Source of the DNA: Gemmatimonadota bacterium
Lineage (GTDB): Bacteria; Gemmatimonadota; Gemmatimonadetes; Palauibacterales; Palauibacteraceae
Assembly: GCA_020351855.1 (NCBI GenBank)
Contig: CP070670.1
Coordinates: forward strand, 2,604,880 to 2,639,373
Length of the DNA: 34,494 nucleotides
Reading direction: 5' to 3'
Both the position numbers and the translations under genes were made by a program. The notes under the pieces were generated by a model. The model made no database searches and was not told the DNA's origin. It saw nothing but the letters and a program-made list of their open reading frames with translations. Shown piece by piece: positions 3 through 27,512 of this stretch (position 1 is the stretch's first letter; the number at the start of each line of letters is the position of its first letter).

Positions 3-2186
3 TCGCCCGAAGGGCGGGCCGAACCCCGGCCCGAGCGGCTGCTCGGAAAGGCTGCCGTGGCGAACGCCAAGCTCGCGTACCGGAGGTTTCGGGAGCTCAC
101 CGCCACGGACCGGTGGCTGGCGCTGGCAGCTGATGGCGCCCGCGTCCAGCGGATGCTGTGGGCATCGACGAGCACGAAGAACCCGCTCTACGGGGACGTG
201 CGTTACGTGGAGCCGCTCATCGGTCCCGAGACCGTGAACACCCTGCCGGACGAGACGATCGCCGCATTCGCCGATCACGGACGGGTCTCGGTGTCCGTGT
301 CGGATGGTCTCGAGGACGCGGAGCTCACGGTCGACGATCTCGGGAAGGCAGGTATCGACTTCGGCCGCGTGACCTGGCAGCTCGAGAACGAGGGCGTCCA
401 GAAGTTCATCGAGCCGTTCGACAAGCTGATGGCCACGATCGCGGACCGGACGCGGAGGGCACACCGCGGCGCGCTCGCCAGCGGCCGCGCGGCCCTTGCC
501 GGAGCGGAGGCCACCGTCAACCAGAACCTTGCCGCTCTGCAGGGCGTCCAGTTTGGCCGCCGGATCTGGGCCCGGGACGCGTCCCTCTGGCCGGTTCGTG
601 AGGAGTCCGATGCGGAGGCGATCCACGGACGTCTGGGTTGGCTCGACAGCACGGGTCATTTCTGCGGCCGTCTGCCCGAGCTCCTCGAATTCGCGGCTGC
701 GGCGCGCGCGGAGCAGATCCGTTCCGTCGTTCTCCTCGGGATGGGAGGTAGCAGCCTGGCCGCAGAGGTGGCGCAGCGGACTTTCGGGTCACAGCCCGGG
801 TGGCCCCGTCTCCGCGTCCTCGACAATACCGACCCGGATTCCGTTCGCGGGATCGAGCAATCGCTCGACCTCGATGCGACGCTCTTTCTCGTCGCCAGCA
901 AGTCGGGTACGACCCTGGAGACGATGAGCTTCTACCGCTACTTCCATGAGCGGATCGCAGAGCGGACCGACACCCCGGGCCGTCGTTTCATCGCCATCAC
1001 GGACCCCTCCACTCCGCTCGCCGAGGAGGCTGCGGCAGGAGGCTTTCGGGCATGCTTCGAGAACCCCCCCGACATCGGCGGCCGCTACTCCGCGCTGTCC
1101 TACTTCGGCTTGGTGCCCATGGCGCTGGCCGGCTTTCCGGTCGAAGAGATGCTCCGGAGGGCAAGCATGATGCAGTCTCTCTGCGGTCCGTTCGTGCCCG
1201 CCAGCCACAACCCGGGAGTCCAGCTCGGGACGGTCCTCGCGGTCCTGGCGAAGCGGGGACACGACAAGGTGACCTTCGTGGCCTCCGGCGCCTTTCGTTC
1301 CTTCGGGCTGTGGGCCGAGCAGTTGCTGGCCGAGAGCACCGGCAAGGAGGGCCGCGGAATCGTGCCGATCGCGGACGAGCCGCCCGGCAGCCCGTCGGAG
1401 TACGGGAGCGATCGGGTATTCGTGTGGCTGGGCCTGGAGGAGGAAGCGGCAGCGGCCTCGGCCGCACTCGAGCCACTCGAAGCGAGTCACCCGGTCCTGC
1501 AGTTCACCGCTCCCGACAGGACGGCACTCGGAGGCGAGTTCTATCGCTGGGAGATGGCGGTGGCCACGGCAGGAGCGCTCCTGCGGATCAACCCCTTCGA
1601 TCAGCCAGACGTCGAGGCGAGCAAGCAGCAGACCCGCGAGGTGCTCGCCGCCTGGGCGGGCGAGGCTCGCGGATCGGACAGCAACGGCGCGGCCGGCCGC
1701 GGGATCGGACCTGGTGAGGAGCCGTTCTCGGTGCTCTGGGGGGGGGACGGCACCGGGGAATCCTTGAAGCGATCGGCGGATGAGGTGCTCGATGCGATCG
1801 CCGACCTCGTGGGCCCCGGCGACTATATCGCCATCCTACCGTACTTCGCGGAGACCCCCCGCCGTGACAACGCCCTGAGCGCCCTGCGGAATCGGCTGCG
1901 GGCGCGGCTCGGCGTTGCGACCACGGTCGGATACGGTCCCCGATACCTGCACTCGACAGGTCAGCTTCACAAGGGCGGGCCCGAAAGCGGCATCTTCCTC
2001 CTGCTGACCGCCAGCCCCGTACCGGAGCTGGAGATCCCGGGGCAGGAAGTCGGATTCGGCCGGCTGATCCTCGCGCAGGCGCTGGGCGACCTCCGCACCC
2101 TGAGCGCGCGCGGGCGCCGGGTGGCACGCATCCACCTGGGCAGCGACGTGGACGGGGGGCTGGAAAGACTGACAGCCGGACCCTAG
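3..2186 (+). CDS. Bifunctional transaldolase / glucose-6-phosphate isomerase, 5'-truncated by the window
   Basis: This is the 3' part of a fused enzyme of the pentose phosphate pathway and glycolysis. The frame is open to the left edge, and the residues before the GTG at 57 read GKAAVANAKLAYRRF, which is transaldolase sequence, so GTG57 is not the true start. The transaldolase C-terminal part runs to about 450 and includes VQRMLWASTSTKNPLYGD. The isomerase part follows from about 540: a SIS-type sugar-phosphate site (LLGMGGSSLAAEV near 735), GGRYSALS near 1078, ESTGKEGRG near 1333, and the C-terminal HSTGQLHKGGP near 1951. Full-length fusions of this kind are about 950 residues, so roughly a quarter lies outside the window. 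A run of nine G at 1738-1746 is read through in frame. It converges on dnaJ. Confidence 0.93.
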   Translation, partial: SPEGRAEPRPERLLGKAAVANAKLAYRRFRELTATDRWLALAADGARVQRMLWASTSTKNPLYGDVRYVEPLIGPETVNTLPDETIAAFADHGRVSVSVSDGLEDAELTVDDLGKAGIDFGRVTWQLENEGVQKFIEPFDKLMATIADRTRRAHRGALASGRAALAGAEATVNQNLAALQGVQFGRRIWARDASLWPVREESDAEAIHGRLGWLDSTGHFCGRLPELLEFAAAARAEQIRSVVLLGMGGSSLAAEVAQRTFGSQPGWPRLRVLDNTDPDSVRGIEQSLDLDATLFLVASKSGTTLETMSFYRYFHERIAERTDTPGRRFIAITDPSTPLAEEAAAGGFRACFENPPDIGGRYSALSYFGLVPMALAGFPVEEMLRRASMMQSLCGPFVPASHNPGVQLGTVLAVLAKRGHDKVTFVASGAFRSFGLWAEQLLAESTGKEGRGIVPIADEPPGSPSEYGSDRVFVWLGLEEEAAAASAALEPLEASHPVLQFTAPDRTALGGEFYRWEMAVATAGALLRINPFDQPDVEASKQQTREVLAAWAGEARGSDSNGAAGRGIGPGEEPFSVLWGGDGTGESLKRSADEVLDAIADLVGPGDYIAILPYFAETPRRDNALSALRNRLRARLGVATTVGYGPRYLHSTGQLHKGGPESGIFLLLTASPVPELEIPGQEVGFGRLILAQALGDLRTLSARGRRVARIHLGSDVDGGLERLTAGP

Positions 2187-24494: not shown

Positions 24495-25568
24495 ATGATC
24501 GAACGGCCGATCGTCCGGACGTCCGGAGCCCGCCTCGCCTGCGCGGGGGTTCTCTCGGCGGTCGCGGTGCTGTCTGCATTCCAGACGTGGCAGTACGTGG
24601 CGGCAAAGGCGACGGCCAGGGGCGAGGTCGCCCGCCGGATCGATGCCGCCGTCCCGACTCGCCCGGCGCTGGCCCTGACCGAGGCCACCAGCGAGTCGCC
24701 ACTCGAGTTCGCCGACCGTCCTCTCCGCGAGGCGGACAGCGACGGGGACGCAGGGCCGCCACCGTCCCGACCGATCGCACGAGGCGGGATCCATCCCGAC
24801 CTCGAACCGCAGGCGCTGAAGCAACCGGCGCTCGCGCCCCGGGACCGAGAGCTGGCCCTCGATCCGGTGGCCGAACGGGGGGTCGCCATCGGATCGACCG
24901 TCCAGAGACCCGGCCATGCGGCGGGACGTCCTTCGGTACGACTCGGGGGCAACGACTCCGGTATCGGGACCCGAGGGACCATCGGGCGGGGACGGGGCCT
25001 GCCCAACCCGTTCATCATTCTCACCGGCGGGAGCGGATGTCAGGGCACTTCGGGCATCTCGCTGCCCGGTACGTTCCCGGGCATGCCCCCCGGGGGAGGA
25101 GCGGCAACCGGGCCGGAGCCGGACCCGACCTCCACCCCGCCGACACCGCTCCTGCCGCCCGGCACCATCGTCGGACGGCCGCCCGAGCCGACCGACATTC
25201 TCGCTCCTTCCGGGGATGGACGCCGCGTCCGACCGGTCGTGCCCGACGGGGGACGGAGGGGCGGGGATGGGCCGTTTCCCCGAACGCAAACGCCTCCGAC
25301 GAGCGGCCGGAACACTCCGGTCGCTGGCGCGGCCGCGGGACGCCTGATCCAGGAGTCCGCGCGGTCCTTCGGCTCACGGCGGCCGCCGTCGACACCGGAG
25401 CGCGCCCGCCCGCAGCCGTCGGTCCGGCAGACCCGGACGACGCAGACCACCGCTCGCCAGCCTCAAGCGACCCCGCGGACCGTAACCCGCCCGATGGGAC
25501 GGCAGAGCCCGGCCCGGAGCGCCCCCGGCGCTGGTCGCTCGCTGGCAAGGGGACGCTCGCCAGACTAA
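24495..25568 (+). CDS. Hypothetical single-pass membrane protein with GGSGCQG motif and basic tail
   Basis: No family recognised. The 357 residues have an N-terminal hydrophobic helix (about 12-33, ending FQTWQYVAA) and then a long low-complexity region rich in Pro, Gly and Arg, presumably outside the cytoplasm. In the middle, RLGGND is followed by FIILTGGSGCQG with Cys182, then GISLPGTFPG. This block recurs in the next gene. The last 90 residues are strongly basic with many Ser/Thr/Pro/Gln. Cys16 precedes the hydrophobic stretch and is not in a lipobox. AGGAG six bases before ATG 24495 fixes the start. Base composition does not differ from neighbours. Confidence 0.72.
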   Translation: MIERPIVRTSGARLACAGVLSAVAVLSAFQTWQYVAAKATARGEVARRIDAAVPTRPALALTEATSESPLEFADRPLREADSDGDAGPPPSRPIARGGIHPDLEPQALKQPALAPRDRELALDPVAERGVAIGSTVQRPGHAAGRPSVRLGGNDSGIGTRGTIGRGRGLPNPFIILTGGSGCQGTSGISLPGTFPGMPPGGGAATGPEPDPTSTPPTPLLPPGTIVGRPPEPTDILAPSGDGRRVRPVVPDGGRRGGDGPFPRTQTPPTSGRNTPVAGAAAGRLIQESARSFGSRRPPSTPERARPQPSVRQTRTTQTTARQPQATPRTVTRPMGRQSPARSAPGAGRSLARGRSPD

Positions 25569-25651
25569 TGTGACGTGGCGGGCTGTTCCTTCGTCAGAGT
25601 GATGACGCCGACGCCGAGCGGGGAAACAGCCTTGGATCGAGGAGGAGGCCG

Positions 25652-26287
25652 ATGACAGAGAGGGTCGGTTACGACGGGACCTATCGGCGCGTGCTGGGGA
25701 TCGGTCTGCTCGTCTCGCTTGCGGTGCACGGGGCGATCCTCGCATGGGGACGCCTCGAAGTCGCCGCGGTCACCGAGCGGAATCCGACCGAGCCCGGCAC
25801 GGAGCTCGCCCTGGCGTTCGCGGACGAACAGCCCGTAGAGCTCCTCGACATGCGCGTGCTCGAGGCGGAGGTCAGCGTCGAGACGGCTCCGGCACCCGAC
25901 GCCGAGACGTCGTCGGTCGAAGCCTCGCTCGATCTGGAGCCGCCGCCGCTCGCCTCCGCCCAGGAGGGAGCGCTGCTCGCCGTCAACCCGGTCGAGATCG
26001 GCGAGACCGACGTCGGGGCGGCGATCGAGTTCGACCGGCTGGGCGCTGCCGTCGCTGCGGCCAGCCGCGGTGGCAACGATCATGACTTCGAGCGCCTGGG
26101 AGGCTTTCGAATCCCGGAGGGCTCGGGGAGGCGCGGACCGCTGATCATCGGCGGCGGTGGAAGCGGCTGCCAGGGCCCGGACGTGATCCGCCTGCCGGGA
26201 AGAAGGACCGGCAGCATTGCCCTGCCGGGAGCCGGAACCGGCGGATTCTCCGGCTACGGCATCGGCTCGCGCTTCTCTCCTCCCTAG
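25652..26287 (+). CDS. Hypothetical TonB-like N-terminal protein with GGSGCQG motif
   Basis: No full-length family recognised. The 211 residues begin with a transmembrane helix containing S22-LAV-H26-GAILAW, the SxxxH signature and surrounding pattern of the TonB/TolA-type helix that engages an ExbBD-like motor. An acidic periplasmic region (about 40-135) follows. The C-terminal part has RGGND, then PLIIGGGGSGCQG with Cys173, the only cysteine, and VIRLPG, matching the upstream gene. No TonB C-terminal beta domain is seen; the end is Gly-rich. GGAGGAGG just before ATG 25652 is a strong ribosome binding site. It lies 83 bases after the previous stop. Confidence 0.75.
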   Translation: MTERVGYDGTYRRVLGIGLLVSLAVHGAILAWGRLEVAAVTERNPTEPGTELALAFADEQPVELLDMRVLEAEVSVETAPAPDAETSSVEASLDLEPPPLASAQEGALLAVNPVEIGETDVGAAIEFDRLGAAVAAASRGGNDHDFERLGGFRIPEGSGRRGPLIIGGGGSGCQGPDVIRLPGRRTGSIALPGAGTGGFSGYGIGSRFSPP

Positions 26288-26435
26288 TTCATTCAGGTTC
26301 CGAAGCGCGCCCGGCGCAGGCGGGGGCCGCCAGATGGACTGGTCCCGCTTCTGCCTGGGACTGCATATTCAGCCAGCCCGCGGTTGACTGTCGTGTCGGT
26401 CACCCGGCCGGTCCGGGTCCCTCCGGGGGGAGAGT

Positions 26436-27512
26436 CTGGTCGCTCACATCCGCCACCTGATCCAGGTCGTCGGCGTCGTTCTCCTCGTCCTGCTGGCGCT
26501 GCGGTTCCTCCTGCCTGCATCGCCGATATCCCCCGCAGCCTGGACGCCCCCGAGCGCCCCGGCTTACGAGGGCCCCTATGCGCCCAACGACCGCCTCGCG
26601 TCGATCCAACGGCTCGGCCAGGGGGCTGGCGTCGGACCCGAGGATGTGGCGGTGGACGTCGAGGGCCGAGTCTACGCCGGGATGGTGGATGGCCGGATCG
26701 TTCGCATGAACCGCGACGGGTCCGGCGCCCACGACTTCGCTCACACGGCCGGAAGGCCGTTGGGCCTCGACTTCGACCCGGCGGGCAATCTGATCGTCGC
26801 GGACGCCGACCAGGGCCTACTCTCCATTGGTCCCGATGGCGCGGTCCGGCACCTGGCCCGAGAGGAGGGTGGGAGGCCCTTCCGCTTGACGGATGATGTG
26901 GACGTCGCGCCGGACGGGACCATCTACTTCAGCGACGCCTCGGACCGTTTCGGCCTTGCGGACTACGTCCTGGATCTCCTCGAGCACCGAGCGAACGGCC
27001 GCCTCCTCTCCTACCACCCCCCGAGCGGCACCGTCAGGGCGCTCATGCATCCGCTCCACTTCGCCAACGGCGTGGCGGTAAGTCCGGACGGCGTCTTCGT
27101 CCTCGTCGTGGAGACCGCCAGATACAGGGTGATGCGCCTCTGGCTGGAGGGACCCCGGCGCGGGGAGAGCGACATCTTCATCGAGAACCTGCCGGGCTTT
27201 CCGGATGGGATCTCCTCGGACGGGGAGGAGATCTTCTGGCTGGCCCTCGTGTCTCCGAGGGACAGGCTGGTCGACCGACTCCTCCCGAGACCGTACCTGC
27301 GCAGGCTCCTGGCCAGGCTGCCGCGCGCCCTCCAGCCGGCACCCAGTCGGTACTCCATGGTGCTCGGCCTCGACCGGAACGGCCGGGTCGTCCACAACCT
27401 GCAGGATCCAGAGGGTGGATTCGCGCAGATCTCCAGCGTCGAGCGTCACGCCGACCAGCTGTATTTCGGCAGCCTGGTCGAGGATGCCGTGGGCCGGCTT
27501 CCCGCCCCGTAA
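26436..27512 (+). CDS. Membrane-anchored strictosidine-synthase/SMP-30-like beta-propeller, CTG start likely
   Basis: Six-bladed propeller of the strictosidine synthase/APMAP group, often hydrolases of unknown substrate. The conserved part runs from RLASIQRLGQG through VAVDVEGRVYAGMVDGRIVRM, FDPAGNLIVADADQGL, HFANGVAVSPDG and FPDGISSDGEEIFW. GTG 26646 is the first conventional start, but homology continues upstream in frame to a hydrophobic anchor (HLIQVVGVVLLVLLALRFLL) and the frame is closed by TGA at 26385. Within that extension the only start-like codons are CTG. CTG 26436 follows GGGGGGAG and gives 358 residues, normal for the family. A frameshift in the G-run at 26425-26430 is the alternative. 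Confidence 0.78.
   Translation: MVAHIRHLIQVVGVVLLVLLALRFLLPASPISPAAWTPPSAPAYEGPYAPNDRLASIQRLGQGAGVGPEDVAVDVEGRVYAGMVDGRIVRMNRDGSGAHDFAHTAGRPLGLDFDPAGNLIVADADQGLLSIGPDGAVRHLAREEGGRPFRLTDDVDVAPDGTIYFSDASDRFGLADYVLDLLEHRANGRLLSYHPPSGTVRALMHPLHFANGVAVSPDGVFVLVVETARYRVMRLWLEGPRRGESDIFIENLPGFPDGISSDGEEIFWLALVSPRDRLVDRLLPRPYLRRLLARLPRALQPAPSRYSMVLGLDRNGRVVHNLQDPEGGFAQISSVERHADQLYFGSLVEDAVGRLPAP

What the first reader, a model, noticed from the sequence alone, without database searches (positions are those of the whole stretch)
24495..26287. Two adjacent membrane proteins sharing a unique Cys-centred motif
Both proteins have one N-terminal helix, a long disordered region, then GGND and after about 20-25 residues [FL]IIxxGGSGCQGxxx[IV]xLPG. 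Outside this block they are dissimilar. A single conserved Cys in a Gly-rich loop suggests covalent pairing, metal or heme binding, or a processing site. The pair sits with an anchored beta-propeller gene and may define an envelope system.
Basis: partly seen in the sequence, partly recalled or inferred. Interest (0 to 1): 0.65.

Follow-up and report, generated by a model that had tools for sequence, protein, structure and literature searches.

The report
Membrane-tethered disordered proteins with invariant cysteine
Two neighbouring genes in a Gemmatimonadota genome are duplicated copies of a widespread, undescribed family of inner-membrane-anchored floppy proteins that keep almost nothing constant except one cysteine near the tail, which suggests a reactive thiol held out into the oxidising periplasm, probably as part of a stress response.

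Summary
The two ORFs and the shared block are real, but the description needs correcting. ORF1 (24495-25568) and ORF2 (25652-26287) are tandem paralogues, alignable from the anchor onward. "GGND" is not part of the motif: it is lost in orthologues. The cysteine is. Profile searches of about 400 Gemmatimonadota genomes gave 61 relatives (55 genomes, 17 genera, 4 families). All 61 carry one aligned Cys in a Gly-rich segment usually followed by Pro, and it is the only Cys in 55 of them. The architecture is a TonB-type N-terminal anchor (hhalign to TonB, 95%), a long region predicted disordered, and the Gly/Pro-flanked Cys. There is no TonB_C domain and no Pfam, NCBIfam or PDB match. In the window's genus the block evolves at dN/dS of about 0.01-0.1 against about 0.2-0.4 for the spacer. 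Pairing and the beta-propeller neighbour are genus-local, and no TonB or ExbD gene lies near. Unexpectedly, 10 of 17 genera have an ECF-type promoter-like sequence (GGAAC-N15-18-GTT) upstream (controls 11/344), and one genus has the gene directly upstream of a SigH-like sigma and an RsrA-like anti-sigma gene. Best reading: an ECF-induced membrane-tethered periplasmic thiol arm working through intermolecular disulfides. The disulfide step is inferred, not shown.

The parts
24495..25568 (+). ORF1, 357 aa: N-terminal anchor without SxxxH, disordered region, Cys block, then a basic Ser/Thr/Pro/Arg-rich tail of about 170 residues
   Evidence: orthologue in G004 (34% identity over 319 aligned positions); paralogue of ORF2. 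The codon-usage gene caller did not pick it, so its reality rests on the G004 orthologue.
25026..25046 (+). GGSGCQG of ORF1 (Cys182 = 25038-25040)
25652..26287 (+). ORF2, 211 aa: TonB-type anchor (S22xxxH26), disordered acidic/Pro/Ala spacer, Cys block, short Gly-rich tail
   Evidence: orthologues in G004, G002, G005
25670..25756 (+). Predicted membrane helix of ORF2 (residues 7-35), the only confidently predicted structure
   Evidence: AlphaFold2; homologous to the TonB N-terminus, hhalign 95%
26090..26179 (+). Conserved block of ORF2 (residues 147-176, ERLGGFRIPEGSGRRGPLIIGGGGSGCQGP; Cys173 = 26168-26170)
   Evidence: 27 of 30 positions invariant in four species against 39% of the spacer; dN/dS about 0.01-0.1
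25569..25600 (+). Conserved non-coding block between ORF1 stop and ORF2 start (TGTGAC...TGTTCCTTCGTCAGAG), probably ORF2's own promoter; resembles an ECF promoter with a CGTC -10
   Evidence: conserved in four species, also where ORF1 is absent; the promoter reading is inference

Best explanation
ORF1 and ORF2 are tandem duplicates belonging to an undescribed Gemmatimonadota family. Each is held in the inner membrane by a TonB-derived N-terminal helix, and its long unstructured arm lies in the periplasm (topology inferred from the anchor). In place of the TonB receptor-binding domain the arm carries one cysteine in a flexible Gly-rich, usually Pro-followed segment. The thiol works by intermolecular chemistry: the arm has no second conserved Cys, the compartment is expected to be oxidising because VKOR-type oxidases are encoded, and the segment is predicted disordered. 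The likeliest acts are disulfide-linked dimerisation or oligomerisation (ORF1 and ORF2 may pair) or capture of oxidised or mixed-disulfide client proteins. In many lineages transcription probably comes from an ECF sigma factor recognising GGAAC-N17/18-GTT or GTA, so the protein would be made during envelope or thiol stress. Shown: family, anatomy, conservation, promoter-like sequence and gene order. Inferred: topology, redox chemistry, stress role.
For: Motif Cys in 61/61 members and the only Cys in 55/61, across 17 genera and 4 families, while the rest is barely alignable. Four members (L039, L044, L045, L046) were pulled in by matches ending at profile position 87-108, before the tail, and still carry the Cys. 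Purifying selection is concentrated on the block. TonB proteins and a second TonB-anchor family of the same genomes lack any conserved Cys. AlphaFold2 for two lineages shows one anchor helix with the Cys segment at low confidence. VKOR x2 in the genome. GGAAC-N15-18-GTT upstream in 10/17 genera against 11/344 controls; permutation p = 5e-5, the floor of the test; spacing peaks at 17-18. Three of the control hits are msrP genes. In genus g4 the gene lies directly upstream of a sigma best matching SigH_actino / M. tuberculosis SigH and a ZAS protein best matching RsrA. Published SigH consensus GGAAYR-(N17-18)-GTT (PMC4803200). E. coli keeps lone periplasmic cysteines reduced by DsbG (Depuydt 2009, cited in PMC4460558).
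Against: No experiment and no partner protein identified. The window's own genes lack the GGAAC element; only G004 in the genus has it at the tested spacing, and genera g43 and g6 lack it. RsrA-like anti-sigma factors are nearly everywhere in the phylum (352/395 genomes) and weak or absent in many genomes of g17, which has the family, so the SigR/RsrA tie is not general. Sigma and anti-sigma scores are below the curated cut-offs of SigH and RsrA. Neighbours differ between genera. His near the Cys in 27/61 and a conserved HAGHDH-like stretch in 18 leave metal binding open.
Confidence: 0.42

Rival explanations
1. Periplasmic metal- or heme-binding arm: the Cys, often with a nearby His or a HAGHDH-like acidic/His stretch, ligates a metal such as Cu or Zn.
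For: His within 10 residues of the Cys in 27/61 proteins, 2.2-fold above the rest of the chain; HAGHDH-like stretch in 18 proteins; invariant DH pair in the g17 set.
Against: No ligand besides Cys is conserved across the family; the window's genus has no His near the Cys; no CxxCH; predicted disordered.
Confidence: 0.2
2. The Cys is a covalent attachment or processing site (lipid, glycan or proteolytic tag) that fixes the far end of the arm to another envelope layer, with the anchor holding the other end.
For: One invariant Cys in a Gly/Pro context, generally 7-50 residues from the C-terminus; envelope sorting signals with a conserved Cys such as MYXO-CTERM are known (own knowledge).
Against: No hydrophobic segment or basic cluster consistently follows the Cys; ORF1 continues 175 residues past it (255 in G004); no lipobox context; no C-terminal sorting family matched.
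Confidence: 0.13
3. Degenerate or specialised TonB: the anchor still couples to ExbB/ExbD and the arm is moved by proton-motive force to deliver or pull through the Cys tip.
For: SxxxH signature in 52/61; S22 and H26 invariant in the g17 set; hhalign to TonB 95%; ExbD present in the genome.
Against: Signature lost in G002/G005, genus g5 and both ORF1 copies; no TonB_C match; no TonB or ExbD gene nearby.
Confidence: 0.15
4. Low-complexity coincidence or non-coding artefact: Gly/Pro-rich reading frames with a chance Cys.
For: High GC and low complexity; ORF1 scores poorly by codon usage.
Against: z = 17 between the two genes, dN/dS far below 1 in the ORF2 block, Cys in 61/61 members.
Confidence: 0.02

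Closest known systems
TonB (PF03544 TonB_C proteins; E. coli TonB-ExbB-ExbD)
   Same: About 32 N-terminal residues are profile-homologous (hhalign 95%, E = 4e-8); SxxxH in 52/61; extended Pro/Ala/Glu-rich region after the anchor.
   Different: No TonB_C domain, no conserved link with exbB/exbD, replaced by a flexible tail with one invariant Cys; SxxxH lost in several lineages.
Second TonB-anchor family of Gemmatimonadota (alignment A6, unnamed)
   Same: Homologous anchor (hhalign 96.7%, E = 3e-10).
   Different: Conserved C-terminal region (RLW...DSL...W..WGI...GIHLG.ITIP) without a conserved Cys.
Lone-cysteine periplasmic proteins guarded by DsbG in E. coli (Depuydt 2009)
   Same: One functional thiol in an oxidising compartment.
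   Different: The E. coli examples known to me are folded enzymes (L,D-transpeptidases); these are membrane-tethered and predicted unstructured. Resemblance in setting only.
SigR/RsrA and SigH/RshA thiol-stress regulons
   Same: Genus g4 gene order gene-sigma-ZAS anti-sigma with best matches to SigH and RsrA; promoter-like GGAAC-N17/18-GTT.
   Different: Scores below curated cut-offs; spacing mostly one base shorter than M. tuberculosis SigH; RsrA-like partner weak or absent in many g17 genomes.
MYXO-CTERM and similar Cys-containing C-terminal sorting signals
   Same: Conserved Cys near the C-terminus of an exported protein.
   Different: No following transmembrane helix or Arg cluster; no HMM match.

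Membership tests
TonB | N-terminal signal anchor with SxxxH | tested here: inconclusive
   52/61 have it and ORF2 has it; lost in ORF1, in G002/G005 ORF2 and in genus g5; hhalign 95%
TonB | TonB_C C-terminal domain | tested here: not met
   No Pfam match in the window proteins or in 22 members; the same model finds true TonBs of this genome
TonB | Coupling to ExbB/ExbD | not testable with these tools
   ExbD is encoded elsewhere in the genome, none near the pair; physical coupling unknown
Bacterial lipoprotein | Lipobox Cys at the end of an N-terminal signal peptide | tested here: not met
   Motif Cys at residue 157-220 across the family, not at the anchor
Cytochrome c type heme protein | CxxCH | tested here: not met
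   Single Cys in 55/61
MYXO-CTERM-like sorting signal | Cys followed by a transmembrane helix and basic residues at the C-terminus | tested here: not met
   Tail sequences; no such NCBIfam match for the family members scanned
SigR/SigH regulon member | GGAAY-N18-19-GTT promoter | tested here: inconclusive
   GGAAC-N15-18-GTT enriched in 10/17 genera with spacing peak 17-18; not in the window itself
SigR/SigH regulon member | Transcription dependent on that sigma factor | not testable with these tools
   Needs expression data

The most novel reading that the evidence does not exclude
A new kind of envelope device: a TonB-derived, membrane-tethered disordered arm whose only conserved working part is one thiol, induced by ECF sigma factors and used as a redox-switchable tether (dimerising or capturing clients) in the periplasm of Gemmatimonadota.
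Probability: 0.3. Interest if true: 0.75.

Novelty: new variant of a known kind. Interest (0 to 1): 0.52.

Why it matters
A family without a Pfam or NCBIfam model, with one invariant residue in an otherwise fast-evolving, predicted disordered chain, is a clean case of function carried by a single side chain. It shows the TonB anchor reused for something other than the known transport role, and it gives an entry point to periplasmic stress responses in Gemmatimonadota, which are poorly studied. It is directly testable with one Cys-to-Ser mutant.

Tried and rejected
GGND as part of the motif: rejected. Dissimilarity outside the block: rejected. Obligatory pairing and linkage to ExbBD or the propeller: rejected beyond the genus. 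Pfam, NCBIfam, PDB: nothing relevant. BLASTP of the G004 pair showed nothing although a plain alignment with shuffles gave z = 19; I take this as an effect of composition adjustment and low-complexity handling. Co-occurrence with RsrA-like factors: uninformative because they are nearly universal. Strict promoter pattern GGAACN{14,18}GTTTGTA in five genomes: three sites, two of them exactly upstream of this family; GTATA version in G067: six sites against three control matches, one upstream of this family (51 bases) and one between an ECF-like sigma gene and a HxxxCxxC protein. An unbiased dyad search upstream gave nothing above shuffles. A search outside the phylum could not be run. Literature: no paper found describing the family.

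Full report
What is there. The window comes from a Gemmatimonadota genome (G000, 2.96 Mb; the nearest named record is a Gemmatimonadales MAG). ORF1 (24495-25568, 357 aa) and ORF2 (25652-26287, 211 aa) lie on the + strand. The shared heptapeptide GGSGCQG is real. The whole proteins align with z = 17 over shuffles, and with z = 7.8 after the block and everything beyond it are removed. Adding the G004 copies makes the colinearity plain: anchor, LALxxAD...E..D.RVxEA, EAS.D.EP..L..AQ, V.PVE.GE.D.G, then the Cys block. They are tandem paralogues, not unrelated proteins sharing a motif. ORF1 scores much closer to ORF2 of its own genus than to other members, so the duplication looks genus-level. GGND is missing in ORF1 of G004 and in two ORF2 orthologues, so it is incidental.

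The family. A protein search of 100 related genomes and profile searches of 345 and 395 genomes found relatives in other genera. From the matches I kept 61 proteins from 55 genomes, 17 genera and 4 families. All have an aligned Cys: three different alignment settings put it in one column in 32 of 32 sequences, and it is the only invariant column of the 22-sequence alignment. In 55 of 61 it is the only Cys. In 56 of 61 at least two of the five residues before it are Gly, and in 56 of 61 a Pro follows within three residues. Membership was judged partly by the tail, which carries some circularity. Against that, four members were found by matches ending at profile position 87-108, before the tail, and still have the Cys. 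Proteins found by the anchor alone that proved to be TonBs or a second anchor family have no conserved Cys.

Selection. Among four species of the genus, 90% of the block (residues 147-176) is invariant against 39% of the spacer. Pairwise dN/dS between the diverged species is about 0.01-0.1 in the block and about 0.2-0.4 in the spacer.

Anatomy. The first 32 or so residues are homologous to the TonB N-terminus (hhalign 95%) and to a second unnamed Gemmatimonadota family (96.7%). The TonB signature SxxxH is present in 52 of 61 but lost in both ORF1 copies, in G002/G005 ORF2 and in genus g5. No TonB_C or other relevant domain is found, and nothing in the PDB. AlphaFold2 on two distant members predicts the anchor helix with confidence and leaves most of the rest, the Cys segment included, at low confidence.

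Neighbourhood. Gene order is conserved only within genera. In the window's genus the neighbours are a strictosidine-synthase-like propeller, apaG and an isomerase-like gene; in G002/G005 an NDH-2-type gene replaces ORF1. In family f2 the gene lies near an isocitrate/isopropylmalate dehydrogenase-like gene and msrPQ; in most g17 loci examined beside exonuclease III- and Fpg/Nei-like genes; in several g43 loci near a dipeptidase-like gene (identified by eye). In genus g4 it is directly upstream of, and codirectional with, an ECF sigma gene and a ZAS anti-sigma gene. The sigma's best matches are SigH_actino and M. tuberculosis SigH, and the anti-sigma's best match is RsrA; the NCBIfam scores are below curated cut-offs. 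TonB_C and ExbD genes lie far from the window.

Promoter evidence. After seeing GGGAAC...GTT in two upstream regions I tested GGAAC-N15-18-GTT against upstream regions of other genes in the same loci: 16/61 family genes, 10/17 genera, against 11/344 controls, permutation p = 5e-5, the smallest value that test can give; two of the 11 controls are family genes miscalled by my gene finder. Reversed and wrong-spacing patterns were not enriched, though GGAAC with TTG as the second element was. Counting each spacing gives a peak at 17-18. The published SigH consensus is GGAAYR-(N17-18)-GTT (PMC4803200). Because the pattern was suggested by part of the data, the p value is optimistic. The window's two genes do not have this element; ORF2 instead has a conserved non-coding block directly after the ORF1 stop, kept also where ORF1 is absent.

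Mechanism. A lone thiol on a tethered, apparently unstructured arm, in a compartment expected to be oxidising since two VKOR genes are encoded, most simply acts between molecules: disulfide dimers or mixed disulfides. In E. coli DsbG protects such lone periplasmic cysteines (Depuydt 2009, cited in PMC4460558). Metal binding is the main rival: His is enriched near the Cys and 18 members have a HAGHDH-like stretch, but no ligand besides Cys is universal. I put the disulfide reading at about 0.4, and the family, anatomy and conservation at about 0.95.

Limits. No search outside the phylum was possible. Genus and family labels are the tool's anonymous ones. Many genomes are incomplete drafts, so absence is weakly supported. 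RsrA-like factors occur in 352 of 395 genomes and are weak or absent in many g17 genomes, so the family is not tied to them in general.

Noticed in passing
L148:495-1457, L150:916-1791, L152, L156, L157, L160, L129, L130: A second uncharacterised Gemmatimonadota family with a TonB-type anchor and a conserved region RLW...DSL...W..WGI...GIHLG.ITIP; no Pfam match in four members scanned.
   Followed up: partly
window 26400-27512: The propeller gene reads through its N-terminal anchor without an ATG, GTG or TTG between 26400 and 26645; the real start may be a rare codon such as CTG.
   Followed up: partly
L049:8690, L050:13168, L051:8101: msrP genes (L049 copy confirmed by NCBIfam) carry the same GGAAC-N15-18-GTT element upstream as the Cys family.
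   Followed up: partly
L190, site at 1501-1528 (reverse strand): GGAAC-N18-GTATA between an ECF-like sigma gene and a protein with a HxxxCxxC motif, as in auto-regulated sigma/anti-sigma pairs.
   Followed up: no
g17 members, e.g. L066:8339-8983: Conserved D[PA]HAGHDH followed by acidic residues upstream of the Cys, a possible metal site of that lineage.
   Followed up: partly
window 25569-25600: Non-coding block TGTGAC...TGTTCCTTCGTCAGAG conserved in four species between ORF1 stop and ORF2 start.
   Followed up: partly
L015:8460-9796 (-), L050:7206-8590 (+): Tandem pairs of the family in two other genera, possibly old duplicates.
   Followed up: partly
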